Shown one piece after another: positions 17,288 through 45,154 of a DNA stretch of 64,000 nucleotides. The notes under the pieces were generated by a model. That model was not told where the DNA came from. It made no database searches and saw nothing but the letters and a program-made list of their open reading frames with translations. The stretch lies in the IMG/VR virus record IMGVR_UViG_3300026488_000022, positions 1 through 64,000 of that record, one strand, 5' to 3'. The translations under genes were made by a program, and so were the position numbers. How positions within the stretch are numbered: position 1 is the stretch's first letter; each line of letters starts with the position of its first letter. Source of the stretch: a virus.

Positions 17288-17305
17288 ACTAAAGATTTTT
17301 CTTTC

Positions 17306-17340
17306 TTATATTATAACTAACTTTAAGGGTTTGGACACTT
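17306..17340 (-). repeat. Intergenic element copy 2, truncated
   Basis: Only the TATATTATAA and AACTTTAAGGGTTTGGACAC part of the element remains. The element sequence stops exactly at the tape measure stop codon (17339-17341), so the deletion or exchange endpoint lies at the gene end. Confidence 0.7.
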
Positions 17341-23263: not shown

Positions 23264-23295
23264 CAGACTATCCTTTTGTAATAATTGCTACTAAA

Positions 23296-23303
23296 TATAT
23301 CAG
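23296..23303 (-). promoter_or_regulatory. Late promoter octamer 2 (tape measure)
   Basis: CTGATATA, 33 nt before the tape measure ATG, at the edge of element copy 3. Confidence 0.6.
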
Positions 23304-23488
23304 TATAAAATAAAAGTAAAATTTAATTTAAAAGCTCTATTATAATATATAATAACTTTAAGGGTTTGGACAGTGTTGGACAGTAACAAAAAGCCCTAAA
23401 ATTCGGACTTTTAACAACTTGCAAACATTTATAATCAGTAAAAAATATCATTTGGGCGGTCAAGAACATTTTATAATTTTTGTAAAAA
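23304..23488 (-). repeat. Intergenic element copy 3
   Basis: Full copy. Differences from the others: GGACAGTGTTGGACAG instead of GGACACTTTGGACAG, and GGGCGG for TCGGCGG. It marks one border of the capsid module and joins directly to the outward plus-strand promoter at 23493-23521. Confidence 0.88.
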
Positions 23489-23492
23489 ACTC

Positions 23493-23521
23493 TTGACATA
23501 AAGTTAAAAGTGTTTTATAAT
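23493..23521 (+). promoter_or_regulatory. Moron promoter, sigma70 type
   Basis: TTGACA (23493-23498), 17 bp, TATAAT (23516-23521). The surrounding sequence (AAAAAACTC before, AAAACAAAAAACAAAAGGAG after) is almost identical to the promoters at 35715, 41271 and 43498. Confidence 0.88.
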
Positions 23522-23558
23522 TCTTAGCATAAAACAAAAAACAAAAGGAGAATTGAAA

Positions 23559-23945
23559 ATGAAAACTACATTTATAAACACAAGAGCAGATTTAGAAAAA
23601 ATGCTAAAAGAAACAAACAAAGAACTTGCTCTTAAATACTTAGAAATATTTAAAAATAGAATAATTTGGGGACAAGCTGAAAAATTTGACAATAATTATT
23701 ATATAGACATTACATTATTTGAAGACACTGATAGCATAAAAAGAGTTAAAGTATCAAAACCAATATTAGAAAATTCAGAGGATGTTCAAAGGTTTATTAT
23801 GTTTTGTCTTGATGAAAAAGATTATATTCATTATTCGAATATAATCACTGATAAAAAACTAATAGGTTTTATAAATGAATTTTATTTAGACTTAATCTCT
23901 TATCACCATTTAAAAGATGAATTAACAAAGGAAAACAATGAATAA
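23559..23945 (+). CDS. Moron protein of unknown function
   Basis: Not recognised. 128 residues from the ATG at 23559, chosen because AAAGGAG (23545-23550) stands at normal distance; an upstream in-frame TTG at 23553 is too close to it. Acidic and basic residues mixed, helix-rich, no membrane segment. It is transcribed against the surrounding late genes from its own strong promoter and is followed by a second gene with overlapping start and a terminator, the typical moron build. Confidence 0.8.
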   Translation: MKTTFINTRADLEKMLKETNKELALKYLEIFKNRIIWGQAEKFDNNYYIDITLFEDTDSIKRVKVSKPILENSEDVQRFIMFCLDEKDYIHYSNIITDKKLIGFINEFYLDLISYHHLKDELTKENNE

Positions 23946-24198
23946 TTATCCTATTCTTTCATTTAGAGTTTATAGTGTTATTTATAGGGCTTTAGAAAAC
24001 AAAAAAGCTAAGATAACATTAAAACACAAGAAAAAAGGCAATTTTAATGTAGAACATTACATAGTAGAAATTAACAACCCCACTTTAAAAGGAAGTGCTA
24101 TTAGAACATACAAACAATATTTTAAAGATAAAAATTTAGAAAAATTTAAAGAAATAATAAATAAAAATGAAAAGATAATTTTTGAAAAGTTTGAGTAA
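23938..24198 (+). CDS. Second moron protein, small and basic
   Basis: The 86-residue, lysine-rich protein is not recognised. Its ATG lies eight bases before the end of the preceding moron gene, so the two are translated together. It ends just before the hairpin terminator at 24189-24225. Confidence 0.75.
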   Translation: MNNYPILSFRVYSVIYRALENKKAKITLKHKKKGNFNVEHYIVEINNPTLKGSAIRTYKQYFKDKNLEKFKEIINKNEKIIFEKFE

Positions 24199-24225
24199 AG
24201 GGCAGATTTTTCTGCCCCCTCAAAC
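24189..24225. terminator. Terminator between moron pair and capsid gene
   Basis: Inner stem GGGCAGA/TCTGCCC (24200-24217) with a T loop, outer stem GTTTGAG/CTCAAAC (24189-24195 with 24219-24225), then GTTTTAG. The hairpin lies between two converging genes and can work for both strands. Confidence 0.75.
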
Positions 24226-24228
24226 GTT

Positions 24229-25437
24229 TTAGTTAGAAGCTACATTAACAATTACAGAAACAGGTGTAGAAGTTACAGAAAGTTTCTTAAAGTCAATATC
24301 TCTATATCCAACATATAGAGTTGTTGAACTAACTGCTTTTCTTTCAGTTTCAATTCCAATGTTTCCTCTATCAGCAACACCAAAATATGCTTTATTAACA
24401 AGTAAAACTGCTGTTTTGTCTCCATTTGTTTCATCAACATCACCATTAGCGTCAAGATTATCAGGGATATACTCAGTTACTACAATAGGCATACCAAATA
24501 ATTTCCCAATCTCACCTGTGATAATTGTAGCTTTAGCACCATATTTATCAATTGTTAGAACTTCTGGAAGTTCAAGCATTTGATATGCTACATTAACAGG
24601 CGCTACAATAGCAAGGTCACTTAAATTAATACCATAAACTCCAAGTAACCTTCTTGCTTGCGCTATAAGACTTGCAGTTACTGTATTTCCACCTGCATCA
24701 ACTTTATTTCCAGCACTTTTAGCGTATTTTAAAAGACCATCAAATGCTTTTTTAACATCATTAACATCAGAAATACCTGTATCACCCATTACAAGTGCGT
24801 CTTCTGTGGCTCTTGCAAGTGATTTTACAAGTTCTTGTCTAACAAGTTGTGTAATAGCTGTTACCATTTCTTTGTCTGCTTGGTCAGTTACTGCTAAAAG
24901 AGTTTTAAATCTTGAAGTTGCAAAACTCACTTTTGCACCATTAATTGCACTTTCAATTGCGTTATCACCAGGAGCAATCAAATAAGCTTTTGCTTTGTCT
25001 GTTTTTGCAGGAATAGAGAACGTACTTCTATTATCAGGCATTCTAAATCTTTGAAATAATCCTTCAACTTTAAGGTCAAGTTCAAGTTCTTCAAGCACTC
25101 TATTTGAAAATTCCTCAGCAAGCCAACTTGCAATGTCTGCTGGTTTAATTGCTTTTTCAACAATAGGAGCAATCTCTTTAAACTCCTCAAAAGTCTCAAC
25201 AGGTCTGCCTAATAGCTTTGATTTAATATGCAAATCAACTGCTTTTTCTCTTGCTTTTTCTACTTCTTTATCGTCATAAGCTTTTGTTTCAAATTGAGTT
25301 TTTCTGTTAGACCATTTATCTTCAAATTCTTTTTTAAGTTCTTCTACTTTTTTTTCTGCTTCAGTTTTAGTAGAGTCAAGTTGTTTTTTAAGTTCTTCTA
25401 CTTCTTTTTGTAGTGTAGAAATTGCTTCAATACCCAT
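24229..25437 (-). CDS. Major capsid protein, HK97 fold
   Basis: The 402-residue protein has a coiled-coil N-terminal delta domain (residues 1-110) that acts as scaffold and is normally removed by the prohead protease, then the HK97 core (DIASWLAEEFSNRV, LFQRFRMPDNRSTFSIP, TSRFKTLLAVTDQ, LVMGDTG). Start set at ATG 25437: the ATG at 25443 is one base from AAAGGA, whereas 25437 has normal spacing. Octamer 3 lies 33 nt before it. It lies between spanin genes and the morons, not behind the portal. Confidence 0.92.
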   Translation of the reverse strand: MGIEAISTLQKEVEELKKQLDSTKTEAEKKVEELKKEFEDKWSNRKTQFETKAYDDKEVEKAREKAVDLHIKSKLLGRPVETFEEFKEIAPIVEKAIKPADIASWLAEEFSNRVLEELELDLKVEGLFQRFRMPDNRSTFSIPAKTDKAKAYLIAPGDNAIESAINGAKVSFATSRFKTLLAVTDQADKEMVTAITQLVRQELVKSLARATEDALVMGDTGISDVNDVKKAFDGLLKYAKSAGNKVDAGGNTVTASLIAQARRLLGVYGINLSDLAIVAPVNVAYQMLELPEVLTIDKYGAKATIITGEIGKLFGMPIVVTEYIPDNLDANGDVDETNGDKTAVLLVNKAYFGVADRGNIGIETERKAVSSTTLYVGYRDIDFKKLSVTSTPVSVIVNVASN

Positions 25438-25469
25438 AACCATATCCTTTAATGTTATTTTACAAAAGT

Positions 25470-25477
25470 TATATCGG
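25470..25477 (-). promoter_or_regulatory. Late promoter octamer 3 (capsid)
   Basis: CCGATATA, 33 nt before the capsid ATG, in the gap behind the 54-residue gene. It gives the capsid gene its own late start. Confidence 0.6.
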
Positions 25478-25482
25478 AAAGT

Positions 25483-25647
25483 TTAATTAGATTTATTTTT
25501 AACAAATTTTTCATTATATTCTTTTATTTGTTGATTTAAAAAATCATTAATCTTTTTCAAATCATTACGCTCTTTAACACAGATTTTATAACGATTAAAA
25601 AGTTCTTCAAATTCATTTAGAGGAATTTCTATCATTTTCTTTTTCAT
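25483..25647 (-). CDS. Small coiled-coil protein of unknown function
   Basis: A 54-residue open frame starting ATG at 25647 inside the end of the Rz1 gene and stopping at 25483 just before the capsid promoter. It is helix-forming and charged (FEELFNRYKICVKERNDLKK) with one Cys. Overlap with the spanin gene suggests coupled translation. No family recognised. Confidence 0.55.
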   Translation of the reverse strand: MKKKMIEIPLNEFEELFNRYKICVKERNDLKKINDFLNQQIKEYNEKFVKNKSN

Positions 25648-25825
25648 CTTTTACCTTTATATGTAAAGTAATAGGTTTTGTTTTTGTTATATTATATTCA
25701 TAAGTTTGTAAAGCGGGACATTTAGACTTTACAAAAACATATTTAATTTTTTCGGTTTCTTTACAAGCACACCCACTAAGGAATAGTAATATTAACATCA
25801 CGCTCAAAAGTAATATTTTTTTCAC
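25613..25825 (-). CDS. Outer-membrane spanin lipoprotein (Rz1-like)
   Basis: 70 residues with a lipoprotein signal peptide, lipobox LSGC near residue 18, then a short periplasmic part. It overlaps the end of the Rz-like gene by 50 bp in another frame, the characteristic Rz/Rz1 arrangement. Outer-membrane spanins join the inner one to fuse the two membranes in the last step of Gram-negative lysis. Confidence 0.8.
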   Translation of the reverse strand: MKKILLLSVMLILLFLSGCACKETEKIKYVFVKSKCPALQTYEYNITKTKPITLHIKVKDEKENDRNSSK

Positions 25826-26096
25826 TATTTTTTCCTTCTTTTTTTATTATTTCTTCTTTAATGTTTTGATATTTATCTTCAAATAAAATAACTTTTAAAT
25901 CATTTTTAATTTTCTGTAATTTAACTTCTAAATTCTCTTTTTCTCTTTTTAGTTTTTTAATTTCTTTTTGTTTTACTAAAATTTGTTGTTCTAATTTTTT
26001 TACTTCTAAACGATAATTAACAACTCCTGCTAATAAAACCAATACAATTCCACTTATAAAATAAGAAAACAATTTAGTTTTTAAAAAATCAAACAT
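25776..26096 (-). CDS. Inner-membrane spanin (Rz-like)
   Basis: 106 residues: a single N-terminal membrane helix (residues about 10-28) followed by a K/E-rich coiled coil reaching into the periplasm and ending in a strand-like tail. The overlap with the Rz1 lipoprotein gene supports the assignment. The start overlaps the holin stop by eight bases. Confidence 0.8.
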   Translation of the reverse strand: MFDFLKTKLFSYFISGIVLVLLAGVVNYRLEVKKLEQQILVKQKEIKKLKREKENLEVKLQKIKNDLKVILFEDKYQNIKEEIIKKEGKNSEKNITFERDVNITIP

Positions 26097-26310
26097 TTGA
26101 ATTTTCCTTTAATTTTGATTTTTCATAACTTCTTCCAGCAATCCAAGCTATCGGAATACCCACAGCAATTGTAGTCCATAAACTTATCAAACTTTCTTTT
26201 AAATTTAAAACCCCAAAACCTTCAAGCAAAGTAATTAACGCACTAAAACACAGAACAAACCAAGACATTAAAGGTCTTGATGTGTTTCTAATTAATTCGA
26301 CTTTATTCAT
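26089..26310 (-). CDS. Holin, two or three membrane segments
   Basis: 73 residues with hydrophobic helices at about 13-33 and 42-60 and a charged C-terminus (RSYEKSKLKE). The start, NTSRPLMSWFV, resembles the RPxLxW start of small holins encoded beside spanins. It overlaps the protease stop and the Rz start, forming a compact lysis cassette inside the capsid module. Confidence 0.7.
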   Translation of the reverse strand: MNKVELIRNTSRPLMSWFVLCFSALITLLEGFGVLNLKESLISLWTTIAVGIPIAWIAGRSYEKSKLKENSNV

Positions 26311-27718
26311 CTAACTTAAGTTTCTCGTTAATAGTTTTTTCTATTTCCGTATAAACCTCAAACAATAAATTCACATCTTCTTTTTCTTTTAAAAATTTTA
26401 AAATTTCATCTTTTGTTAGTGCTTTTTCACTATTAACAGATTTTTTATTTCCTTGGTCATCTCTATCTGCAAAATACTTTTTCATAAAAGCTAATAGTTT
26501 TGCAACCTCACTTCTACCTATAATAAAATCATAAACATTTCCATCATCTTTAACATATCTTCTAATTCTATAACCTAAAGGTGGGTTAGGATAAGCTGTT
26601 AAAACACTGTTTTCAGTTACATTAACAATCAACTCACCTTGTTCTCCTCCTTGTAACTGACTTCCCTCCTCTGCACCTTGTGCATCACTAATAATTTGAT
26701 TTACTTTATCTTTTCCTAAATTTGTAGTTCCTCCACGTTTAGCTTTTGTTTGCATATTTTCAACCTCCTTAATTTCAGAATAAACTTTTTCTACTTGTGA
26801 CTCAAATTCTTTTACCATATCTTGTAATTCTTGTGGTATTTCTCCTATCAGTTCCTGTTTTAACATTTCTTTATAATGTTTTAAAAGATGCCTTGCGGCA
26901 TCTCTTTTTTCAACAGCACTAATATTAGGATTGTTTCTTGCACCTCTTAGTGCTTGATAAGCCGCAATCACACCATTTTTATTAACTATTAAATCTTCAC
27001 CTTGTAATTCGTGATGAGGAAACTTCCAAGTACTTCTAAGTTCTGGGTCTCCTACAACTAAATACGCTTCTTTAATATAGTTTAATTTACCCATTTCAGC
27101 TAATTTTTGTCCTAAAGCAGTCTTATCTACTTCTGACCAAGGTTTAGTACTAATTACGTTATTTTTTATTGCTTTTTCTTTCATTTTTTTATTTCCTTTC
27201 TTATTGTAATTTTGTCTTGTTGAAAGCAAACAAACTCCACTTTCACAAGGACTGCTTTCTAAAACATTAAACAAGCTATCTTGATTATCTGGTATTGAAA
27301 CGATACTAACTTCATAAAGCTCAATTTTAGTCCAATACCAGATACCATTCACCTCTTTGTATTCAAGCCCTCTAAATCCAATTGAAAAAGCCTTTAAAAT
27401 ACCCTCTTTTACAGCTAAATAAACTTTTGGGTTTAAATCTTTATAAACAACAGCCTCAATTTCAAGCCCTTGAGCATTTAAATTAATATTAGTAACTTTA
27501 CCAACAACATCACTTGGATTATGCTGATAAAGCAAAATAGGATTTTTCATATAGTTTTTTAAATCGTAACTTTCAGGCAAAACACTTTCGTCACTTCTAT
27601 CAATAACCAAATTACCGTTATCGTCGATATAACGATTAGCATATCCTTTTATTGTTATTTTTTCATCAGTAACTTCTGTTGAAAATTCTTTTATAATCAA
27701 ATTTAAGTTTTTATCCAT
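26303..27718 (-). CDS. Prohead protease (U35) with long C-terminal extension
   Basis: Residues about 1-150 of 471 are the HK97-type prohead protease: catalytic His in LLYQHN, Ser in KAFSIGF, acid in ELYEVSIVSIP. After a linker comes a second conserved domain (KPWSEVDKTALGQ, STWKFPHHE, GVIAAYQALRGARNN, AARHLLKHY) known from phage head proteins and perhaps scaffold-like, then a charged tail. Start set at ATG 27718 behind AAGGAG, rather than TTG 27721. First gene of the capsid module. Confidence 0.88.
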   Translation of the reverse strand: MDKNLNLIIKEFSTEVTDEKITIKGYANRYIDDNGNLVIDRSDESVLPESYDLKNYMKNPILLYQHNPSDVVGKVTNINLNAQGLEIEAVVYKDLNPKVYLAVKEGILKAFSIGFRGLEYKEVNGIWYWTKIELYEVSIVSIPDNQDSLFNVLESSPCESGVCLLSTRQNYNKKGNKKMKEKAIKNNVISTKPWSEVDKTALGQKLAEMGKLNYIKEAYLVVGDPELRSTWKFPHHELQGEDLIVNKNGVIAAYQALRGARNNPNISAVEKRDAARHLLKHYKEMLKQELIGEIPQELQDMVKEFESQVEKVYSEIKEVENMQTKAKRGGTTNLGKDKVNQIISDAQGAEEGSQLQGGEQGELIVNVTENSVLTAYPNPPLGYRIRRYVKDDGNVYDFIIGRSEVAKLLAFMKKYFADRDDQGNKKSVNSEKALTKDEILKFLKEKEDVNLLFEVYTEIEKTINEKLKLDE

Positions 27719-27742
27719 CAAAACTCCTTAAAACTTTTATAT

Positions 27743-27750
27743 TATATCGT
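27743..27750 (-). promoter_or_regulatory. Late promoter octamer 4 (protease), variant
   Basis: ACGATATA, 25 nt before the protease ATG at the edge of element copy 4. First base differs from the CTGATATA/CCGATATA classes. Confidence 0.45.
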
Positions 27751-27899
27751 CTTAAAAAATTCTATTATAATATATAAATAACTTTAAGGGTTTGGACACT
27801 TTGGACAGTAACAAAAAGCCCTAAAATTCGGACTTTTAACAACTTGCAAACATTTATAATTAGTAAAAAATATCATTTCGGCGGTCAAGAGGTTTTTAT
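27751..27899 (-). repeat. Intergenic element copy 4
   Basis: Core complete from TTATAATATA to GGCGGTCAAGAG; the moron promoter part is absent. It is the second border of the capsid module, in the same orientation as copy 3. Confidence 0.88.
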
Positions 27900-27921
27900 A
27901 AAAAGAGAGAAAAGAAAAGAT

Positions 27922-28419
27922 TTATACTCCAACAAAAGCGTGGTTAATAAACACAATCAATTGGTCTTGGTCAGTAACATCAAAAGCCTCATCAAATAAA
28001 AAATGGTTTAAAGCTTCAGTAGGATTATCTGGGTCATCTACTAAAGCACCTTCTATAACTCCATTTGCGACTACTTCACCTACGTCATATGTTATTTTAT
28101 ATGTTATAACATTTTCCCCTCCATTAGTATTTCCTTCATCTGTATAGTTTCTTTGGGGGAAACCACTATCGACAATTCTTGAACTTGGGTCTATATAAGC
28201 ATTAACATCAGTATCGTCTTTTGTAGGGTTTGAACTATCCGTTCCTAACCTTAAATATAAAGTATCTAATGAACTTGTTTCACCTATAATTTTTTTAGCA
28301 TAATGAATATCCCCAGCATTTGTTACTATATTATGCCCTTTAATTATTTTTTCTTTTCCTGTTTTTTTATTAATTATTTTTACTAAAATATTATCTTTTA
28401 CAATTCCTTTTACTAACAC
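27922..28419 (-). CDS. Phage structural protein of unknown role
   Basis: 165 residues, GTG start behind AAGGAG. The pattern (GHNIVTNAGDIHYAKK, LYLRLGTDSSNP, ENVITYKITYDVGEV, LIVFINHAFVGV) is that of a small beta-sandwich protein found among phage structural genes. It stands alone between the tail chaperones and the capsid module with its own octamer 5. Confidence 0.5.
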   Translation of the reverse strand: MLVKGIVKDNILVKIINKKTGKEKIIKGHNIVTNAGDIHYAKKIIGETSSLDTLYLRLGTDSSNPTKDDTDVNAYIDPSSRIVDSGFPQRNYTDEGNTNGGENVITYKITYDVGEVVANGVIEGALVDDPDNPTEALNHFLFDEAFDVTDQDQLIVFINHAFVGV

Positions 28420-28445
28420 TTTAAAACTCCTTTAATCTTTACATT

Positions 28446-28453
28446 TATATCAG
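28446..28453 (-). promoter_or_regulatory. Late promoter octamer 5
   Basis: CTGATATA, 27 nt before the 28419 GTG, overlapping the stop region of the chaperone gene. Confidence 0.5.
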
Positions 28454-29121
28454 AAACTGCTTTCTTTGTTGTTTTTTTGTAATTCTTTCATTTCCTCTTG
28501 TTGTATCTTATCATAAAGTTTTAAACTTGCTAAATAAAAAAATTTAGTCTGGTCGTATAAACCGCCCTCATCTGGTAGAAAACCTTTTTCAAAAGCGTTA
28601 TAACATTCAATAGCTTCTGCAATTAACTTTTTATCTACATCATAAATAGGACAATATGTATAGACTTTATCTCCAACATAAACTTTAAAATCTTTTTTCT
28701 TGTTTTTTTCTCCTCTAAAACCACAATTTCTAACTCTATCAAGTCTTTTTGCTTTACAAACTTCACATTTCCAAGTTTCAGCTTTAAATTTACTATCAAA
28801 ATAAATATCAATACTATCATAAAGTTTATTTAGCACCTCTAAAGTAACATCGCTCACTTCAAAAATAAACTTACCTACTTCTTTAATAGTATCTGAAGAT
28901 AAAAAAGAGAAAGGCAATTCAACTCCCTTTTTATCTTCTATTTTTACAACTGAAAATTTAAGAGCGTAATAATATAATTTTAAAACCTCACCGTTTAACA
29001 TATAAGGCTCAAGTGAGTTAATTTCCCTATAAGATAACGTTCTTAGCATTAATTCTAAATTAGGTTGAGAATTTGGAGTAATAAAGTGAATTACCTTATG
29101 ACTTTTAACATTATTTATCAT
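28450..29121 (-). CDS. Tail assembly chaperone-like protein with zinc-type cysteines
   Basis: 223 residues from ATG 29121; the frame is open to a GTG at 29133. It overlaps the preceding chaperone gene by 11 bp, as second chaperones do, but I see no clear slippery heptamer for a frameshift fusion. CEVCKAKRLDRVRNC is a probable metal-binding knuckle. The end is a charged helix (KLYDKIQQEEMKELQK). Position between tail tube and tape measure (now split by the capsid module) fits a chaperone role. Confidence 0.55.
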   Translation of the reverse strand: MINNVKSHKVIHFITPNSQPNLELMLRTLSYREINSLEPYMLNGEVLKLYYYALKFSVVKIEDKKGVELPFSFLSSDTIKEVGKFIFEVSDVTLEVLNKLYDSIDIYFDSKFKAETWKCEVCKAKRLDRVRNCGFRGEKNKKKDFKVYVGDKVYTYCPIYDVDKKLIAEAIECYNAFEKGFLPDEGGLYDQTKFFYLASLKLYDKIQQEEMKELQKNNKESSF

Positions 29122-29521
29122 CCTCTTCTTCACCTAAGTAAAGTTTTGCATTTTCTGGGTCTTTAGAAATTCCTACAATTACATTTGCAATTTCAGTTAT
29201 AAATGAAATAGGAAGATAATTTAAAGTTTCATCAGAAATACCGATAGTATCCCTATTAATAGGAATTTCTCTATTTCTCTCATCAAGTAAATTCCTCCAA
29301 TCTACTATTCCTCTTTTGCAAACTTCCCAATTATAAGAACCGGTAGAAACACTAATACTTTCATCTTTATTTAACCTAACCATTTTATCTTCAATCTCAA
29401 TGAGTTCTTTTGGAGTTAAAGGTCTAATTTCAACTGTAAAAGGGTCTTTTTCTCCTCTTTCTAAGATAGGAACATATCTATAAGTTATATCCTTTTTAGC
29501 TCTATCAATTCTAATTGCCAT
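29111..29521 (-). CDS. Tail assembly chaperone
   Basis: 136 residues. The segment VEIRPLTPKELIEIEDKMVR is typical of phage tail chaperones that bind the tape measure protein during assembly. It directly follows the tail tube gene and ends in acidic EEEDDK. Confidence 0.65.
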   Translation of the reverse strand: MAIRIDRAKKDITYRYVPILERGEKDPFTVEIRPLTPKELIEIEDKMVRLNKDESISVSTGSYNWEVCKRGIVDWRNLLDERNREIPINRDTIGISDETLNYLPISFITEIANVIVGISKDPENAKLYLGEEEDDK

Positions 29522-29567
29522 TTATTATCCTTTATTAATTAAATTTAGTTAATAAAGCACACAAAAA

Positions 29568-30893
29568 TTATTTGTGTGCTAAATAGAATGCCTCACCTAA
29601 AACTGGATGTTCATATGCCTCAAACTCAAGTTTATTTGCAAGAACACCATCATCATCTTCTACACTTACACTTGTGTATTTGATATATGGTAACCAAATT
29701 GCAAATTTATGTTTTTGTGTTTCATCGTCAGTTTCAGTTTTCATTTCAAGGAAAAACTCTGCTGTTTGATTATTTTTGAATTTGTTAAGCTCATCCCAAT
29801 TTTCAAAAGTAACAGTCATACTACCTTTAACTGTTTTTTTAGTGATAATTTTCCTCATAATACCAGAACTTGTAATAGCCTCTCTATCAGAAACTTGATT
29901 TTCGATTGTTATTTCAACATCTTTACCTTCATAAGTTTTACCATCAACTGTAAGAACTGCATTTTTACCAACATATGGTATTGTTGTTAAATATTGATTT
30001 GAAAGCAAAGGTTCATTTTCTGCTGTTTCAAAAGAACTTGCTCCTAAATCAATTGACAATGTTGCAATATCTGCAACAGGAAAACTAAATTTAACTGAAT
30101 TTGGAACTGCACCTTTTAGTGTTAAACTTCTACTATCAGTCTCATCACACCCATACATCAATTTAACAGCTAAAGATTGTTCCTGACCACAAGGCTTAGC
30201 GAGTTTATATAAAACAGCATCCCCTGTTTCGCCTTCTTGAACTTCGTAGATTTGATAAGCAACATTACTAACAACATCAATTGTGAATTTATCTCCTACT
30301 GCAAAGTCAGTAGAGCCACTAACAATTTTAAATTTAATAATACCGTTGTCATAATCAACACCTGTTGTTGCCTCAGCTTGTGTGCCACTTTCAGTTCCTT
30401 CAACACTCCAAACCTCAGCACCTGCTGTATCTGCATTTATACACTCAATAGTCCAAGTTTCAGTTTTAATAGTGTCTTCATAATACCCAAAATTAGTTAA
30501 GTTACCGTCCCCTGTGTTTCCACTATCAGCTGTGATAGTACTTTCAACTTGAGGGGCTTTGTTTGCTCTAATTACAGCCCCTGTACCAGACCCTGCCTCT
30601 TCTCTAATACCTAATGCTACTTCTAAAACTACATTACCTGCTAAATCATTACTTCCATCTCCTAATGGAATTAGCTCAAATGCTAATGTCCCACTACCAA
30701 ATTCTTTACCCGGTAATGCAGGAGCAGTAATATAAGAGTTTCTTACAACTTTTCTTTCAATAACGTCAATTTCTGGTTTTAATGCACTATCAGATGTAAC
30801 TTCAACAACATCACTGTCTGTAAATGTACCACCTTTATTAAATTCTGCTTCTTTAATAACCGCATAAAGAGTAGATAAAGTTTTATATGCCAT
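29568..30893 (-). CDS. Major tail tube protein with inserted beta domain
   Basis: The 441-residue protein has a tube-protein start (LSTLYAVIKEAEF, VRNSYITAPALPGKEFGSGT) and end (KGSMTVTFENWDELNKFKNN, FEAYEHPVLGEAFYLA). At about 115-215 an extra beta domain is present (TETWTIECIN, WSVEGTESG, DNGIIKFKI, VGDKFTIDV) which also occurs in the proteins at 15304 and 31917. Inserted domains in tube proteins usually project from the tail surface. Octamer 6 lies 32 nt upstream. Confidence 0.85.
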   Translation of the reverse strand: MAYKTLSTLYAVIKEAEFNKGGTFTDSDVVEVTSDSALKPEIDVIERKVVRNSYITAPALPGKEFGSGTLAFELIPLGDGSNDLAGNVVLEVALGIREEAGSGTGAVIRANKAPQVESTITADSGNTGDGNLTNFGYYEDTIKTETWTIECINADTAGAEVWSVEGTESGTQAEATTGVDYDNGIIKFKIVSGSTDFAVGDKFTIDVVSNVAYQIYEVQEGETGDAVLYKLAKPCGQEQSLAVKLMYGCDETDSRSLTLKGAVPNSVKFSFPVADIATLSIDLGASSFETAENEPLLSNQYLTTIPYVGKNAVLTVDGKTYEGKDVEITIENQVSDREAITSSGIMRKIITKKTVKGSMTVTFENWDELNKFKNNQTAEFFLEMKTETDDETQKHKFAIWLPYIKYTSVSVEDDDGVLANKLEFEAYEHPVLGEAFYLAHK

Positions 30894-30924
30894 TTTACCT
30901 TCCTTTTATTTATTCTACAAAAAT

Positions 30925-30932
30925 TATATCGG
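30925..30932 (-). promoter_or_regulatory. Late promoter octamer 6 (tail tube)
   Basis: CCGATATA, 32 nt before the tail tube ATG. Confidence 0.6.
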
Positions 30933-30939
30933 ATAGGTA

Positions 30940-31917
30940 TTATTCACCTTCGATAATACCTTCACCTGCTAATTTTATCGGACTTTTCACCACAGGATTT
31001 AACACCCTGTATTTTACATTCAATTTATCAAAACCTTCTTCTGTTATTATTTTAGTTTCTATTATTTCAATTTCTGGTAATTCTATACCATAAGAAAATT
31101 GAACATTTTTATTATTAATTTCAAAAAATGACACTTCTTTACTTAGATAATCAATTTCAGCTAAATTTAAAGTTCTGTTAAAAAATCTTGTCTGGTCAAA
31201 TAAAGCCTTAGTATAAGATTTATTACTCATAGGAGGCAAGAAAGCATAATTTCTTTTTGCACATAAAATATAAGATACTTTTACTCCGTTTTCAAATTCA
31301 ATTGTTAGTTTATTTTGATAAAGCTCTTTTAAACCTACAAAATATAAAAATTCAATATTAAATACTTTTTCGGTATTAGGATTTATTACATCTCCTATAT
31401 TAATACCTTTAATTTGAATACCATAAACATTTAACAAATTAATACTTTTAACTTTTAAATCTTCCTTATAACCATTAACAAACTTAACTTCAACAACTTT
31501 ACTAATATCATCAGTTAAATCCACTTCAACCCAAAAATTGCCTTTAAAAACACCTTTACTCCAGATTAAATTTTCTTTTAAAGTATCCTTAATAAGATAA
31601 AAATTGTCTTTTATTTCTGTCTGAATAATTTTGTTTTCTAATTTATAACCATAAACTGTTAATTTTTTAAGTTTTTGTTGAGGTTTAACAAAATAAGTAG
31701 AATATAAAACACTATAATAATTACAATTTTTTAAATTAATTTTATAATTGCAACTTTTAACAGAAGTTACATTTCCTTCTAAGGCTTTTAATAACTTATA
31801 AGAAACACTTTCATTAATACTTTCGTTTTCTAAATTATAAACTCTTAATTTTGCATTAACAAAATTTTTATCACCTATATTTGTGTTTTCATTTATATAC
31901 TTATTTATAGTAGCCAT
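30940..31917 (-). CDS. Tail appendage protein, paralogue of 13053-14300
   Basis: 325 residues, sharing ESVSY, SCNY-type cysteine segments, NGYKEDLKV and IGDVINPNTE with the protein at 13053. Unknown function. It shares the base of the upstream stop/start (TAATGG) with the LamG-containing gene, so both are translated together. Its gene lies directly before the tail tube gene, where siphophages usually have no appendage gene. Confidence 0.55.
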   Translation of the reverse strand: MATINKYINENTNIGDKNFVNAKLRVYNLENESINESVSYKLLKALEGNVTSVKSCNYKINLKNCNYYSVLYSTYFVKPQQKLKKLTVYGYKLENKIIQTEIKDNFYLIKDTLKENLIWSKGVFKGNFWVEVDLTDDISKVVEVKFVNGYKEDLKVKSINLLNVYGIQIKGINIGDVINPNTEKVFNIEFLYFVGLKELYQNKLTIEFENGVKVSYILCAKRNYAFLPPMSNKSYTKALFDQTRFFNRTLNLAEIDYLSKEVSFFEINNKNVQFSYGIELPEIEIIETKIITEEGFDKLNVKYRVLNPVVKSPIKLAGEGIIEGE

Positions 31918-33638
31918 TACAATTTCCTTGCTAAATTACCTATTTTAAATATCTTATCAGTTAAATCAATATCAGGTAGATATCCCCACAAAACTTTTTC
32001 ACTATTAACATAAACTTCTACATATTTTTCTTCTTTATAAAAGATAAGTGTATAAAAAAGCCACTCTTGTAAATTATATTTTTTATCACTTATAGTTTGC
32101 CCATCTAAATAAATATAATTTCCATTTTTAACAATATAAACATAGATTTTTCCGTTTGGGTGCATTCCTAAGCCAAGTCCGTTTTGCTCTTCATAATTAC
32201 TTAAAATTAAACGTTCATAACCATTCAAATAAAACCAGCCACTAACGGAAAAATCGCTATTAGGAATAGGAACATTTGTTTTTACCCCCGAATAACCTTC
32301 TAAAACCACTGCTTTATGTAGATAACCTTTTTCATAATAACCGGGATATTCCTCATTAATCCATTCCCCTAAATAAACTTCTTCTTCATCGTTTAAATTT
32401 TCTTCAAACCTAAACAATCCTACACAACTACCATCACCAAAAATATCTTTTATTTTTTCAGTTCCTTCTTGTTTATAATGCCCTACTAAAACTTCTGAAC
32501 TTATACTATAATATAAAGAGGCTTTAAAATCATTACTTAAAGCTTCTTTAATTAAATCAAAACATTTAATATCAGTTACAAATTCACCGTATCCGATTTT
32601 ATCAACTACTTCAAAATCTTTTATTCCGTTTTTACTATTTATAGTATTAATCTCTTTTAATTTATTTTCTAAAACAAATTGAAACCTCTCAACATTATAA
32701 TTTTCACCAGAAATATTAAAACAACCATATTGTTGATAAATTTCAGTCAAAAATACCTCTCTAAAAGGCTCTCTTAAAAATTCATTCTTATGAAATATAT
32801 ATTCAGGAGATTTTAATTCAAATATGAGTTCAGGAGTATTATTAACATCAAACAACATAGTAAATTTAGAAACAACAGCTTTTTTTAATTCAATCGCACA
32901 AGTGTCGTCTCCACAATAATATCCCATTAATAAATCAACCTTCGGTAACTCACTACATTTCATTGAAGGTTTATATAAAAAAGCACTTCCTAATTCTCCT
33001 GCTTGTACTTCATAAATCTGACAAGCTACATTTGAAGTTATATTTATTGTAAAATAATCACCAACATTGTATTCAAATTCGTCTGAAATTAAAACTTTAA
33101 TAATTTCATTAAAATAATCTTTTCCTGTTATGGCATTGTGTTTCCAACCACTTTCACTACCATAAACAGACCACTTTTTATCTCCTAAATATTCAAATGT
33201 CCAAACTTCAGTTTTTACATTAAAAGCAACATAATCTAATAATTGAACTTTTTTATTAATGCTTTCTATTGTATCACTCTCTATTTCATATTCAATTCTC
33301 GGATATTTATTAGCATTTAAAATCCCTCCACTACTAATACCGGGTATCTGCCTTTCTCCAAAGACACTATAAAAAAGCTCATTATTCACATTATCAAAAA
33401 CTTTATTATAAACAAAAGGTAAAAGAGATGTTTTAACGATAGCTGACCCGTTGCTTTTTCCTAAAACTTTCTTTTTATCAAAAAAATAAGTTTTACTTTT
33501 ATTTCTGTCAATTTTAGTAAAATCAATATTTACTAAACTTCCGCTTTTAAATTCAATCAAGTCATTAGCAACAAAAAAATCATTACGTTCATTATCACTT
33601 CTTTTAACTGCTATTATTTTAACTGACTCTTTTTTCAA
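31917..33638 (-). CDS. Diverged tail-tube paralogue with C-terminal LamG-like domain
   Basis: Residues about 130-400 of 573 follow the tail tube protein at 29568 segment by segment: TEVWTFEYLG, WSVYGSESG, VGDYFTINITSNVA, QIYEVQAGE, a cysteine pair YYCGDDTC against YGCDETD, and NISGENYNVERFQFVLENK. The last 170 residues are a LamG/concanavalin-like fold (GLFRFEENLND, FSVSGWFYL, EVYVNSEKVLWG). So this looks like a second tube-type subunit carrying a sugar-binding domain. Role in the tail is inferred. Confidence 0.6.
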   Translation of the reverse strand: MKKESVKIIAVKRSDNERNDFFVANDLIEFKSGSLVNIDFTKIDRNKSKTYFFDKKKVLGKSNGSAIVKTSLLPFVYNKVFDNVNNELFYSVFGERQIPGISSGGILNANKYPRIEYEIESDTIESINKKVQLLDYVAFNVKTEVWTFEYLGDKKWSVYGSESGWKHNAITGKDYFNEIIKVLISDEFEYNVGDYFTINITSNVACQIYEVQAGELGSAFLYKPSMKCSELPKVDLLMGYYCGDDTCAIELKKAVVSKFTMLFDVNNTPELIFELKSPEYIFHKNEFLREPFREVFLTEIYQQYGCFNISGENYNVERFQFVLENKLKEINTINSKNGIKDFEVVDKIGYGEFVTDIKCFDLIKEALSNDFKASLYYSISSEVLVGHYKQEGTEKIKDIFGDGSCVGLFRFEENLNDEEEVYLGEWINEEYPGYYEKGYLHKAVVLEGYSGVKTNVPIPNSDFSVSGWFYLNGYERLILSNYEEQNGLGLGMHPNGKIYVYIVKNGNYIYLDGQTISDKKYNLQEWLFYTLIFYKEEKYVEVYVNSEKVLWGYLPDIDLTDKIFKIGNLARKL

Positions 33639-33639
33639 A

Positions 33640-34047
33640 TCAAATCCTTTTAATATACCTAACTTCTATATCTATCTTTGCAATAGCATAAGGATGAACT
33701 ATCCCACCTTCTCTTTTCATACTACTCACTGTCATATCAACAACACCCATAGGTTGCCATCTAATATCCTCTACAACCTCATAAACAACATCAATTAAAT
33801 CACTTAATATATCCTCATATTTATTTCTATGTTGTTTATTAAACACATAAACACTAATGTTACCAATATAATAAGCTTTTCTATTTGTTAAATTGTCTCT
33901 TTCTTTTTCCTCACTTTCATAAATCACACTAACAGCCGGAAATCTGTCTATTTGAGACCATAAAGGAACTATATTTTTATAAAACTTAACAAACAAATTC
34001 TTATCTTTTAAGCCTTGGACTATTTTCTCTACAATTTCTTTTCTCAT
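33640..34047 (-). CDS. Tail terminator / tail completion protein
   Basis: 135 residues. The segments FPAVSVIYESEE, YIGNISVYVFNK and HPYAIAKIDIEVRY fit phage tail terminator proteins (lambda gpU, HK97 gp10-neighbour type), which cap the finished tail. Located between the gp10-like gene and tail genes, as expected. The ATG overlaps the stop of the 28-residue membrane peptide gene. Confidence 0.6.
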   Translation of the reverse strand: MRKEIVEKIVQGLKDKNLFVKFYKNIVPLWSQIDRFPAVSVIYESEEKERDNLTNRKAYYIGNISVYVFNKQHRNKYEDILSDLIDVVYEVVEDIRWQPMGVVDMTVSSMKREGGIVHPYAIAKIDIEVRYIKRI

Positions 34048-34130
34048 AATGAAAACCCTTTTAAAAATTCAATACATAACATCAATAAAATTACAAAATA
34101 AAATAAATTAGTACTTTTTTTAATTATCAT
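34044..34130 (-). CDS. 28-residue membrane peptide
   Basis: ATG at 34130 overlaps the stop of the preceding gene (ATGA) and the stop at 34044 overlaps the ATG of the next gene, so the frame is locked between two real genes. GGAG stands five bases before the ATG. One hydrophobic helix (NLFYFVILLMLCIEF). Function unknown. Confidence 0.6.
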   Translation of the reverse strand: MIIKKSTNLFYFVILLMLCIEFLKGFSL

Positions 34131-34612
34131 ATCAGCTCCTTAGACTCTTTTAAAATCAATTCAAATAAATCTCCTACTGAAGTGATATTACCTCTACCTT
34201 TATCAAACAAAACATCATACATCCAATCTTTCCAATAAGGCACTTTTCCATCTTTTCTTTGGGGTTTTGCCATATCAGTAAATTTAGCATAAGGCACTCC
34301 TATTTCTGCCCAACTATGAATTATAAAACTTTCTCCTTTTTTATAACTCTCAACCTTTGTTTTAATACTATTAACTTGATTTCCACTAATTTTATAAGTA
34401 AATCTTCTTTTTAACGGTCTTCTTTTATGGAGGTATTCAACAGGAATAGGAGTACCTAATGCTCTTTTAAGTGCTTTTTTCCAAGCTTTTAAATCTAAAT
34501 CAAGATTTTTTGCTAAAAGTTCTAATTTATGAAAAGATAAATCGGGTAATTCTTTTTTAAGCCCTACCCAAGCCTCCCCGACTGATTTTTTTATCCTCAC
34601 ATTAGCTATCAT
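34127..34612 (-). CDS. Head-tail joining protein, HK97 gp10 / minor tail Z type
   Basis: 161 residues, with basic middle (YLHKRRPLKRRFTYK) and segments IIHSWAEIGVPYAKF and WMYDVLFDKG. Size, charge and place after the gp6-like connector fit the gp10/Z family of neck or tail-completion proteins. Four-base overlaps exist on both sides. Confidence 0.5.
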   Translation of the reverse strand: MIANVRIKKSVGEAWVGLKKELPDLSFHKLELLAKNLDLDLKAWKKALKRALGTPIPVEYLHKRRPLKRRFTYKISGNQVNSIKTKVESYKKGESFIIHSWAEIGVPYAKFTDMAKPQRKDGKVPYWKDWMYDVLFDKGRGNITSVGDLFELILKESKELI

Positions 34613-35166
34613 AATCTAAATACCCTAAAAGAATTTAACATTTTATCTACAACAGCAGGAACTTCATCATTAACTTTCATACTTTCTCTAATGCCTGTGG
34701 ATAAAGAAGCTATGTTATCTGTATCTTTTGTTACGTCATTATAAAGTTTTTTTCCTAATAACAATAAACCTGATACCAACCCCTCAGGTATTAAATCAAT
34801 ATCATTATAACCTACCTTATATTCAATTCGCATAATCTGATAGTTCTCTATTGAAAATAAAACAGGCAGATAAATTCTATTTAATTCTCCTATTTCAAAA
34901 CTTAATAACACATCATTTTCAAGCTCCTCGCCATCAATCGTTATTTTTATAATTTCACTTATTAGACCTTTTTTTGTATAAATAGAGTTACCATAAATTT
35001 TATTAATGCGCTCAACTAAATCTCTTTCAAAAATTCCCACATTATAATAGTCATAAATATAACTCTCACTTATAATTAATATTTCTTTTAACAATTCATC
35101 TATTTCATCATCTTGAATATCTAAAACTTTTTTAAACTCTATTAACAAATCATCTATAAGAGCCAT
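34609..35166 (-). CDS. Head-tail connector, gp6-like
   Basis: 185 residues. Helical N-terminus (IDDLLIEFKKVLDI, ILIISESYIYDYYNV), a strand-rich middle and a helical end with IPEGLVSGLLLLGKKLYND fit the HK97 gp6/SPP1 gp15 connector family that forms a ring below the portal. Confidence 0.7.
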   Translation of the reverse strand: MALIDDLLIEFKKVLDIQDDEIDELLKEILIISESYIYDYYNVGIFERDLVERINKIYGNSIYTKKGLISEIIKITIDGEELENDVLLSFEIGELNRIYLPVLFSIENYQIMRIEYKVGYNDIDLIPEGLVSGLLLLGKKLYNDVTKDTDNIASLSTGIRESMKVNDEVPAVVDKMLNSFRVFRL

Positions 35167-35206
35167 AACTTATCCTTTTATAAAACTTACAATTTTAGAC
35201 CAAAAA

Positions 35207-35485
35207 TCAACTATTTTCTTTTTTAGACTTTGCTTTTCTTTTCCTCGTTTGACTTTTGGTATGTAATTCGCTTGTGGTTTCCCTCTCTTTACGAAGTAAC
35301 TCCTTTTTAGAATTTTTAGTCGTATCTTTAATCTTTTCTATTAAAACAAATTCTTTTGGAAAAGTAGAAAGCAGATATTTACCAAGCTCTTCATCTACAA
35401 CATACAAACCATCATATCTATTAGGACTAAATAAAATCCCTCTAACCATAATACCTTTACCGATAACTTTAATTTTATATTTCAT
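35207..35485 (-). CDS. Small protein with basic tail, head region
   Basis: 92 residues: a strand-rich first half (IKVIGKGIMVRGILFSPNRY, YLLSTFPKEFVLIEKI) like small proteins often encoded between capsid and connector genes, then a very basic tail (TRKRKAKSKK). Its position beside gp6 suggests that it belonged to the capsid-connector border. Octamer 7 lies 32 nt before the ATG. Confidence 0.5.
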   Translation of the reverse strand: MKYKIKVIGKGIMVRGILFSPNRYDGLYVVDEELGKYLLSTFPKEFVLIEKIKDTTKNSKKELLRKERETTSELHTKSQTRKRKAKSKKENS

Positions 35486-35516
35486 TATAAATCCTTTTAA
35501 TAAATGTATTTACTTA

Positions 35517-35524
35517 TATATCAG
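35517..35524 (-). promoter_or_regulatory. Late promoter octamer 7 (connector operon)
   Basis: CTGATATA, 32 nt before the 35485 start at the edge of element copy 5. Confidence 0.6.
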
Positions 35525-35710
35525 TATAAAATAAAAGTAAAATTTAATTTAAGAATTCTATTATAATATAATAATAACTTTAAGGGTTTGGACACTTTTG
35601 GACAGTAGCAGAAAGCCCTAAAATTCGGACTTTTAACAACTTGCAAACATTTATAATCAGTAAAAAATGTCATTTCGGCGGTCAAGAGTTTTTTATAATT
35701 TTTGTAAAAA
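35525..35710 (-). repeat. Intergenic element copy 5
   Basis: Full copy, nearly identical to copy 6 (both with GGACACTTTTGGACAGTAGCAGAAAG). It lies at the portal-connector junction and joins the outward moron promoter. Confidence 0.9.
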
Positions 35711-35714
35711 ACTC

Positions 35715-35743
35715 TTGACATAAAGTTAAAAGTGTTTTATAAT
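35715..35743 (+). promoter_or_regulatory. Moron promoter, sigma70 type
   Basis: TTGACA (35715-35720), 17 bp, TATAAT (35738-35743), almost identical in surroundings to 23493-23521. Confidence 0.88.
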
Positions 35744-35780
35744 TCTAAGCATAAAACAAAAAACAAAAGGAGAATTGAAA

Positions 35781-35906
35781 ATGAAAAGAGATTTTAATAT
35801 TTTAAAAATATATCAAAGAGAAATAAATTGCAGACCAAAAGTTGTTAAAAACAAAAAGAAATATACAAGGAAAGTAAAGCATAAAAAAGCTTTACTAAAC
35901 TTTTAA
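35781..35906 (+). CDS. 41-residue basic moron peptide
   Basis: ATG behind AAAAGGAG and the strong moron promoter. The product is highly basic (KNKKKYTRKVKHKK) with a single Cys. It ends inside the last codons of the convergent portal gene (12-bp overlap). Function unknown; nucleic-acid binding is possible from charge alone. Confidence 0.7.
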   Translation: MKRDFNILKIYQREINCRPKVVKNKKKYTRKVKHKKALLNF

Positions 35907-37229
35907 ATCAGGCTCACCACCAAGTGGGTCTGTGCTTCCTACATTTGTAGGTTTGTTTTGCCCTTCTGAACTATTTTGACTCATTTTTACTAAATCTTGA
36001 AAGAATTGTGCTTCACTTCCTGTTAAAAATGCAGGAACAACATTTTTGTCAGCTCCTTCAAAATCCATTTCTGGTAAATCAACTAAATCTCTTGCCTCAT
36101 TTAATGTAGCAAGTCCTGTTGCAAACAATGTTCTTGCACTATCAGCTTTTACATCAAGTGCAGTATCAAGTTCTGTTATTCTTCCAAAATCAAACTCAAA
36201 ATAATATTTTCCATAACCAAATTGTTTCCCTAAAAAGAGATTAATTTGGTCTTGTATTCTATAAAGATAAGGTCTGACTGCAGTATTAAAAACAACTTTC
36301 ATTAATTCTTGAGGTTTTCCTGCACTTTTATCTTCTCCTCCTAAAACAAGAGAATTTAATTTAAAAACTCTTAAAACTCTTTTTTCACTTATATCAAGGC
36401 TATCTAATAACATTGCGTCTCTTGGACTTGCTTGTACTGTTTTATAATCCATTTTAGCGGGTAAAACAGCAATTCCTCTTCTCTCACTTCCTCCTTTACC
36501 ATATAAAGCATTGAATTGGTCTCTTAATTCATCTATTTGTTGAGGTGTTAGAGCATATTCTGCTTTTAAAATACCAGCTAAAATTACACTACCCTCATAA
36601 AACTCTTTTAAACTATCAATAGCGTCCTTTTCTAAAGTTAAAGTGTCAAGTAAAGGTGCTACACTCGGCAAACCGTAATATGCATTATTTAATGTTGGGT
36701 TAATAATCCAAATAAGTTCGTTTTCTTTATAAGCAATTTGGTCATTATAAATATACCCTTTAATAAATTTAGAGGCGTCAGGTACAACTTGCACTAAATG
36801 TGGTTGGGTTAAAAACCAAGTTTCATAACTTCCTTTAACGTTTTCAAAAGTTAAAGGCGCTACCCCTGAAAGTAATAAACCTTGAATTGCAAGTTCAATT
36901 ATAACTCCCCAGGACCAAAAAGGATTTGGTCTATATTCCCATTCTGCTAATTTTTTATCTTTAACAGGCAGTTTTTTACCCGATTTATCTAACCTATAAA
37001 GTCTTGGGATTGCTTGTCCTCCAGCTTTTGCGATATAATCAACTGCACTAAAAACAAGCTCACTTGTATGAAAAGTGTTTTCCATTCCACTTGTAGCAAG
37101 TTGATTGTTACCTAATTTATAATCCTCAGCTATTTTTTTATTTGCTTTTGTTGCCTTTGTGTCCATATAAACTATTGTTTGTTTTTCTGTTTTTATATCC
37201 TTAGGTTTTAAAAAATCAAATAATCCCAT
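35895..37229 (-). CDS. Portal protein
   Basis: The 444-residue protein forms the dodecameric vertex for DNA packaging and tail attachment. HK97-type segments are visible: FVFSAVDYIA near 55, YRPNPFWSW near 105, LIWIINPTLNNAYYGLPSVAPL near 170, LKAEYALTPQQIDELRD near 225, SEKRVLRVFKLN near 285, and LNEARDLVDLPEM near 395. Followed by element copy 5 instead of the protease and capsid genes. Confidence 0.92.
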   Translation of the reverse strand: MGLFDFLKPKDIKTEKQTIVYMDTKATKANKKIAEDYKLGNNQLATSGMENTFHTSELVFSAVDYIAKAGGQAIPRLYRLDKSGKKLPVKDKKLAEWEYRPNPFWSWGVIIELAIQGLLLSGVAPLTFENVKGSYETWFLTQPHLVQVVPDASKFIKGYIYNDQIAYKENELIWIINPTLNNAYYGLPSVAPLLDTLTLEKDAIDSLKEFYEGSVILAGILKAEYALTPQQIDELRDQFNALYGKGGSERRGIAVLPAKMDYKTVQASPRDAMLLDSLDISEKRVLRVFKLNSLVLGGEDKSAGKPQELMKVVFNTAVRPYLYRIQDQINLFLGKQFGYGKYYFEFDFGRITELDTALDVKADSARTLFATGLATLNEARDLVDLPEMDFEGADKNVVPAFLTGSEAQFFQDLVKMSQNSSEGQNKPTNVGSTDPLGGEPDLKV

Positions 37230-43264: not shown

Positions 43265-43299
43265 TAAATCTTCCTTTTTAATAGATTGTAATTTTAAGT

Positions 43300-43307
43300 T
43301 ATATCAG
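43300..43307 (-). promoter_or_regulatory. Late promoter octamer 11 (terL)
   Basis: CTGATATA, 36 nt before the terL ATG. Confidence 0.6.
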
Positions 43308-43493: not shown

Positions 43494-43497
43494 ACTC

Positions 43498-43526: not shown

Positions 43527-43557
43527 TCCAATACAAATAAAAACAAAGGAGAATAAA

Positions 43558-45121: not shown

Positions 45122-45154
45122 CTTTTAAAACCTTTATATTTTAATGTTATTAAA

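What the first reader, a model, noticed from the sequence alone, without database searches (positions are those of the whole stretch)
23304..37229. Capsid module out of place and bracketed by the elements
Usual siphophage order is portal, protease, capsid, connector, tail. Here protease, lysis genes and capsid (24229-27718) lie between tail chaperones and tape measure, with element copy 4 on one side and copy 3 on the other. Copy 5 sits between portal and gp6 connector, exactly where the module is missing. Three junctions with the same direct repeat fit a move of the module by recombination between elements.
Basis: partly seen in the sequence, partly recalled or inferred. Interest (0 to 1): 0.8.

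Follow-up and report, generated by a model that had tools for sequence, protein, structure and literature searches.

The report
Capsid gene block moved between promoters
In this 80-kb virus of bacteria, the block of genes that builds the head shell has moved from its usual place, still held by its two closest relatives, to a new place among the tail genes, and copies of one repeated control switch lie at all three new joints, a clear natural case of a virus rearranging its core gene order.

Summary
The protease, lysis-like and capsid genes (24229-27750, - strand) lie between the tail genes and the tape measure. Two close relatives (complete circular contigs, capsid 90% and 93% identical) are colinear with this phage over about 80 kb but keep portal-protease-capsid-connector. 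More distant relatives also keep protease directly after portal. The window's order is therefore derived.

An assembly error is unlikely. All three contigs end in an exact 127-nt overlap (a circular k=127 assembly), and the three junction repeats share only 46-60 identical nt. The module's identity to the relatives matches that of its neighbours, so it moved within the lineage.

The 'elements' are not transposons. They are dispersed cassettes at operon heads: a perfect sigma-70 early promoter facing away (in three copies), a stem-loop and a repeated TGTCC motif, mostly followed by a late-promoter-like CTGATATAT box. Relatives carry the motif at two of the three borders. All three new joints run through a copy, and the module keeps its own late boxes.

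Best explanation: homologous recombination between cassettes excised the capsid unit and reinserted it. Known analogues are PeSL cassettes in T4-type phages and repeat-bounded modules of Campylobacter phage CP21. The derived order is well supported; the recombination path is inferred.

The parts
24229..27750 (-). moved module: protease (26303-27718), holin-like (26089-26310), coiled-coil membrane protein (25776-26096), Rz-like (25613-25825), small ORF (25483-25647), capsid (24229-25443)
   Evidence: Families; canonical place in relatives; cut exactly after the portal stop and after the capsid stop compared with relatives
27742..27750 (-). late-promoter-like box (ACGATATAA) of the protease; first ancestral bases of the moved block
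   Evidence: Same box after the portal stop in both relatives: GTTTAG|CCGATATAAT; box class lies 29-43 nt before late genes
25469..25477 (-). late-promoter-like box of the capsid gene (CCGATATAA), 34 nt before the start codon
   Evidence: same in both relatives
27751..27901 (-). element copy 4: new junction between gene 27922 and protease; lacks the downstream part (with CTGATATAT) seen in other copies
   Evidence: absent at the protease in relatives
23264..23559 (-). element copy 3: new junction between capsid side and tape measure; includes divergent early promoter
   Evidence: homologous motif upstream of the tape measure in both relatives
35486..35780 (-). element copy 5: new junction between portal side and connector operon; includes divergent early promoter
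   Evidence: motif at 14300 in G001 before the same gene; degenerate in G002
23493..23521 (+). perfect sigma-70 promoter TTGACA-17-TATAAT in copy 3, driving 23559-24198
   Evidence: 12 of 12; one of two such sites in 23200-37300
35715..35743 (+). perfect sigma-70 promoter in copy 5, driving the 41 aa gene
   Evidence: copies 3 and 5 are 95.7% identical over 187 nt here
23559..24198 (+). two small early-type genes (128 and 86 aa) between capsid and copy 3, not found in G001 or G002
   Evidence: no family matches
35781..35906 (+). 41 aa early-type gene whose 3' end now runs into the portal 3' end (scar)
   Evidence: 91% identical over 34 aa to a G002 gene next to TerS, 56% to one in G004; homology stops at the portal stop
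43265..43557 (-). element copy at TerL, paired with an early promoter and + gene; shares 120 identical nt with copy 5 and 89 with the copy at 7506
7506..7701 (-). element copy upstream of the 5'-3' exonuclease gene; relatives hold only the short core here
45130..45271 (-). short element copy upstream of a holin-like gene
48799..48988 (+). inverted element copy upstream of the rightward operon 49042-55607
17299..17340 (-). core fragment of the element between tape measure and next tail gene
17339..23263 (-). tape measure protein, new downstream neighbour of the module
35895..37229 (-). portal protein, former upstream neighbour of the module

Best explanation
The protease-lysis-capsid block is one late transcription unit that moved inside this phage lineage from between portal and connector genes to between gene 27922 and the tape measure. 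The 'elements' are dispersed regulatory cassettes at operon heads: in three copies a divergent sigma-70 early promoter serving a small + strand gene, then a stem-loop and tandem TGTCC motif, then in most copies the downstream operon's late promoter. Inferred path: one cassette lay between portal and protease (carrying the 41 aa gene) and another between capsid and connector. Homologous recombination between these two direct repeats excised the module as a circle with one cassette, and a second crossover put the circle into the cassette before the tape measure. The module kept its own late-promoter boxes and stayed expressed. Shown: the order is derived, the whole-genome colinearity otherwise, exact cut points at two stop codons, a cassette at all three joints, and long identical tracts between cassette copies. 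Inferred: that homologous recombination did it, the order of steps, and the promoter functions.
For: Gene order: G001 and G002 are colinear with the window phage around the circle apart from this block and have portal-protease-lysis-capsid-35207. L011, L012 (with L013-L015 the same order), L035, L036, L037, L038 and G004 also have protease right after portal. Cut points: relatives read portal stop GTTTAG|CCGATATAAT-protease; the window has GTTTAG|TAAAGC at the portal and AAGA|CGATATAAT at the protease, and the capsid side is cut just after its stop. Elements: at all three joints; in relatives at TerL and before the tape measure, and before 35207 in G001 (degenerate in G002). Recombination among copies: 120 nt identical between copy 5 and the TerL copy, 89 between the exo and TerL copies, 95.7% over 187 nt between copies 3 and 5. 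The motif is TGTCCAAACCCTTAAAG in all 8 window copies but GAAGC in G001 (5) and GGAGC in G002 (4), and full window copies cluster together rather than by position. Not horizontal: nucleotide identity of protease 79-80% and capsid 87-88% falls within the range of most flanking genes, 74-91%. Not assembly: 127-nt terminal overlap in all three contigs and no exact repeat as long as 126 nt. Late boxes C[TC]GATATA[AT] (one variant ACGATATAA at the protease) 29-43 nt before 11 late genes including protease and capsid; a phage sigma factor is encoded.
Against: No relative carries an element between portal and protease, so the cassette needed there for a pure three-repeat exchange is not seen. Copy 4 ends early, before the CTGATATAT part, so at least one joint (copy 4|protease), and the joint 41-aa-gene|portal, look illegitimate rather than homologous. 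No second, independent contig with the derived order was found. No reads were available. No recognisable annealing protein or RecA-type recombinase was found among the proteins scanned, although exonuclease, RuvC-like and SbcCD-like genes are present.
Confidence: 0.7

Rival explanations
1. The move happened by tandem duplication of protease-to-27922 followed by two deletions, with illegitimate joins at the portal|protease gap. The elements matter only as one homologous deletion site and as tolerated boundaries.
For: Copy 4 joins the protease at a short A/T microhomology and lacks its downstream part; the 41 aa gene is fused into the portal 3' end. This path needs no prior cassette at portal|protease.
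Against: It needs more steps, and the 41 aa gene at the portal differs after ATGAAAA from the + gene at copy 3, whereas simple duplicates would match further. All three joints carrying a full element core is then partly coincidence (chance 8e-4 to 0.02).
Confidence: 0.17
2. The module was acquired or replaced by recombination with another phage that already had it at the tape measure, rather than moved within this genome.
For: These phages are mosaic: chaperone-like genes are closer to G002 and gene content differs locally.
Against: The module's identity to G001 and G002 matches that of neighbouring genes, and no phage with the order was found in viral contigs. It only pushes the question back to that donor.
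Confidence: 0.08
3. Assembly artefact: the assembler swapped flanks at three similar repeats.
For: All three joints lie in repeats, and the canonical order is reached by re-pairing the flanks of copies 3, 4 and 5.
Against: The contig is a closed circle with a 127-nt overlap, implying k=127. Copies 3, 4 and 5 share at most 60 identical nt and no exact repeat reaches 126. The longest repeat pair (copy 5/TerL copy, 120 nt) keeps the relatives' order. Re-pairing would still leave an element between portal and protease that the relatives lack.
Confidence: 0.04
4. The elements are transposable (insertion-sequence-like) and carried the module as a composite transposon.
For: The module is bracketed by two direct copies, and extra copies appear in this genome compared with relatives.
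Against: No transposase-sized ORF or terminal inverted repeats were recognised in the copies. Copies lie at operon heads, and the same positions in relatives hold homologous short motifs.
Confidence: 0.01

Closest known systems
PeSL (promoter early stem-loop) mobile regulatory cassettes of T4-type phages (Arbiol et al. 2010, doi 10.1093/gbe/evq006; Comeau et al. 2014, doi 10.1093/gbe/evu129; not held here, read only as cited in PMC4503421)
   Same: Dispersed copies of an early sigma-70 promoter joined to a stem-loop, reported to mediate shuffling of genes
   Different: The genome here is not T4-type (tape measure and HK97-type capsid of other tailed phages). The cassette also holds a TGTCC repeat and usually a late promoter. 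What moved is the capsid unit rather than a set of accessory genes (the accessory nature of PeSL regions is from general knowledge)
Campylobacter group II phages CP21 versus CP220/CPt10 (PMC4546147)
   Same: Close relatives differ in module arrangement, with repeat regions at the module borders; structural genes are affected; low-GC genomes
   Different: Their repeat regions are 1-2.9 kb with many units, and modules of 28-55 kb are inverted. Here the repeats are about 150-250 nt regulatory cassettes and a 3.5 kb unit is transposed without inversion
Boundary or linker sequences in lambdoid phages (general knowledge; mosaic formation by relaxed homologous recombination, PMC3945230)
   Same: Short conserved sequences at module borders used for recombination
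   Different: Those mainly exchange equivalent modules between phages; here the position of a core module changes within a lineage

Membership tests
PeSL cassettes (T4-type phages) | early sigma-70 promoter in the repeat | tested here: met
   12-of-12 promoters in copies 3 and 5 and in the TerL copy; absent from copy 4, the exo copy and the 45166 copy
PeSL cassettes (T4-type phages) | stem-loop next to the promoter | tested here: met
   8-bp stem, -11.3 kcal/mol, z -2.8; -11.6 and -7.9 in G002; not in the one G001 sequence folded
PeSL cassettes (T4-type phages) | resident in a T4-type myovirus genome and homologous to described PeSLs | tested here: not met
   No near DNA match among 50,697 phage records; portal, capsid and TerL match families of other tailed phages; direct comparison with described PeSL sequences was not possible
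CP21/CP220 repeat-bounded modules | 1-2.9 kb repeat regions made of many 72-86 bp units | tested here: not met
   Elements are single copies of about 150-250 nt
CP21/CP220 repeat-bounded modules | close relatives colinear except for modules bounded by repeats | tested here: met
Insertion sequence / composite transposon | transposase gene within the element | tested here: not met
   No ORF of transposase size within copies
Siphophage with HK97-type head module | S78 protease, HK97-type capsid, portal, tape measure | tested here: met

The most novel reading that the evidence does not exclude
In this phage group the late transcription unit is the unit of rearrangement: the cassettes are kept alike by gene conversion and act as a standing recombination system, so that core head and tail operons are re-ordered repeatedly, possibly with alternative orders coexisting in one population. 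The distant relative G004, whose head and tail genes are in yet another order with its own repeated motif before several operons, would be a second instance.
Probability: 0.25. Interest if true: 0.8.

Novelty: new variant of a known kind. Interest (0 to 1): 0.6.

Why it matters
The order terminase-portal-protease-capsid-connector-tail is among the most conserved in tailed phages, and why it is conserved is debated (general knowledge). This phage gives a recent, direction-known exception: relatives are mostly 75-90% identical at the nucleotide level and the cut points are located to the base. It suggests that the capsid unit can work from another place if it keeps its own late promoters, and it names the DNA that probably allowed the move, which can be tested directly.

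Tried and rejected
Assembly artefact: tested with terminal overlaps and repeat lengths and largely rejected. Horizontal acquisition: tested with per-gene identities, not supported. Transposon reading: rejected.

Searches that found nothing: megablast of 20 kb against cultured phages; exact element patterns in viral contigs; kin of a virus record are not drawn by the genome search; Rfam at gathering scores. Independent contigs with the derived order were sought with capsid, portal, gene 27922 and TerL queries: only canonical-order relatives were found. The one scan of genome contigs gave a single 4.6 kb fragment with canonical order from capsid onward. The primary PeSL papers are not held.

An iterated nhmmer profile of the G004 repeat was weak, so the G004 argument rests on a plain motif and gene order. 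One call was an input error, and one script stopped after giving most of its output.

Full report
What is there. The window is part of an 80,614-base IMG/VR virus record. All virion genes run leftward. Reading in the direction of transcription, the order is TerL (43264-41906), three putative tail or fibre genes, portal (37229-35895), gene 35207, gp6-like, 34127, tail terminator, 31917, 30940, tube (30893-29568), two chaperone-like genes, 27922, then protease (27721-26303), holin-like, coiled-coil and Rz-like genes, capsid (25443-24229), and then tape measure (23263-17339). Repeat copies sit at 23295-23541, 27752-27901 and 35517-35763, the three joints, and also at 7506, 43300, 45166, 48799 (inverted) and a core piece at 17299.

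The order is derived. Capsid, portal, gene 27922 and TerL searches of viral contigs each returned the same two close relatives, G001 (78,936 bases) and G002 (83,931 bases). A whole-genome protein comparison shows the three are colinear around the circle except for this block. In both relatives the order is portal-protease-lysis genes-capsid-35207-gp6 ... 27922-tape measure. More distant contigs (capsid 41-64% identical: L011, L012 and its near-identical L013-L015, L035, L036, L037, L038) also have protease immediately after portal and capsid next. The window phage is the only one that separates portal from protease. The polarity is therefore clear: the window phage changed.

It is not likely an assembly error. 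The three contigs each begin and end with the same 127 bases, the sign of a closed circle assembled at k=127. In the window phage no exact repeat of 126 bases exists. Copies 3, 4 and 5 share only 60, 57 and 46 identical bases pairwise, and the longest pair (copy 5 and the TerL copy, 120 bases) lies at places where the order agrees with the relatives. Reads were not available, so this is strong but indirect.

It is not foreign DNA. Nucleotide identity to G001/G002 is 80/79% for protease and 87/88% for capsid, against 85/84% for portal, 85/85% for tube, 81/80% for gene 27922 and 74/75% for tape measure.

The cut points. In both relatives the portal stop is followed at once by the protease leader: GTTTAG then CCGATATAAT. 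In the window the portal ends GTTTAG and goes straight into the 3' end of a 41 aa gene on the other strand, while the protease leader, starting at CGATATAAT, is attached to the end of element copy 4. On the capsid side homology stops just after the stop codon; the relatives' terminator is replaced by another hairpin and two small + strand genes leading to copy 3. The 41 aa gene is 91% identical over 34 residues to a gene next to TerS in G002, and 56% to one in distant G004; its own C-terminal end is lost at the portal joint. So the block was lifted out between two stop codons with no virion gene broken.

What the element is. Read in the late direction, a full copy holds a perfect TTGACA-17-TATAAT promoter facing the other way and serving a small + strand gene, a 100-base conserved stretch, an 8-bp stem-loop followed by Ts (-11.3 kcal/mol, z -2.8), two TGTCC repeats, CTTAAAG and TATAAT, and usually an ACTGATATAT box. 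Not every copy is full: copy 4 and the copies at 7506 and 45166 lack the early promoter, and copy 4 lacks the ACTGATATAT part. The box class is found 29-43 bases before 11 late genes in the window phage, including TerL, portal, protease, capsid, tube, 27922, 35207 and tape measure. It is found before matching genes in G001 and G002, more often than any shuffled version of the word (11 against at most 6). The phage encodes a sigma factor (Sigma70_r2 4e-7, phrog_351 1.9e-9), the natural candidate to read that box; this pairing is inferred. Protease and capsid each carry their own box, which would explain how the unit could work at a new address.

The elements recombine with each other. Each phage has its own spelling of the core: TGTCCAAACCCTTAAAG in 8 of 8 window copies, TGTCCGAAGCCTTAAAG in 5 G001 copies, TGTCCGGAGCCTTAAAG in 4 G002 copies. 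Full window copies cluster together. Within the window phage, tracts of 120 and 89 identical bases link different copies, and copies 3 and 5 agree at 95.7% over 187 bases. In G001 two copies share more than 80 identical bases. At the exonuclease gene the relatives have only the short core, where the window phage has the long version. Copying or conversion between sites is the simplest reading.

Mechanism. All three new adjacencies run through an element. By chance this would be about 8e-4 over 76 adjacencies, or 0.02 if only the 25 larger gaps count. The simplest path is: a cassette (with the 41 aa gene) between portal and protease and another between capsid and 35207 form direct repeats; a crossover releases the module as a circle; a second crossover inserts it at the cassette before the tape measure. 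This predicts the observed flanks of all three joints. Two facts weaken it. No relative shows the required cassette at portal|protease. Copy 4 ends early at that joint, so at least one illegitimate step took place there. Duplication followed by deletion is the main rival.

A wider pattern, tentative. The distant relative G004 (capsid about 45% identical) has a different order again: TerL, 34127, tube, chaperone, small tail genes, then portal-protease-capsid, then tail terminator, with gp6 and the second chaperone elsewhere. It has its own repeated motif before several operons. This suggests that operon shuffling recurs in the group, but the distance is large and the G004 repeats were only lightly studied.

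Comparison with the known. PeSL cassettes of T4-type phages combine an early promoter with a stem-loop and are reported to mediate shuffling (cited in PMC4503421; originals not held). Campylobacter phage CP21 differs from CP220 by inversion of repeat-bounded modules (PMC4546147). The present case works like these but belongs to neither: the genome is not T4-type and the repeats are short single units. It is a new variant of a known kind. The point of interest is that the head-shell unit itself moved, with direction and cut points known.

Noticed in passing
L029:14647-15249 (record 78647-79249): Phage-encoded sigma factor (Sigma70_r2), with homologs in G001, G002 and G004; candidate reader of the CTGATATAT late boxes.
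   Followed up: partly
window late genes; G001; G002: Box C[TC]GATATA[AT] 29-43 nt before 11 late genes in the window phage and matching genes in two relatives: a likely late-promoter class.
   Followed up: partly
L029:1776-1993 (record 65776-65993): The DNA polymerase A gene is split by about 217 nt that look by eye like a group I intron (AATCCTGAGCCAAGCC ... GATATAGTCCGACACC); no Rfam match at gathering score. G001 has the gene intact; G002 is split too.
   Followed up: partly
L029:6571-8358 (record 70571-72358): ThyX-type thymidylate synthase with an intein carrying an HNH endonuclease.
   Followed up: no
G004 (IMGVR_UViG_3300026531_000002), 40-68 kb: Distant relative with strongly scrambled head and tail gene order and its own repeated motif (AAAGCGACACACA) 30-36 nt before several operons.
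   Followed up: partly
29568-33638 and 13053-14300/30940-31917: Paralogous tail genes: 31917 resembles the tube protein, and 30940 resembles 13053; the extra pair is in the window phage and G002 but not G001.
   Followed up: no
37440-40367: Two adjacent virion genes share related C-terminal parts (about 30% aa; 120-nt repeat 73% identical), suggesting duplication.
   Followed up: no
57592-57696, 60886-60990: The same early promoter cassette without the late part also drives two leftward gene groups outside the late region.
   Followed up: partly
L040 (JALVEF010000103.1): A 4.6 kb contig binned as a Saprospiraceae MAG carries capsid-to-chaperone genes of this phage group; probably a mis-binned phage contig.
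   Followed up: no
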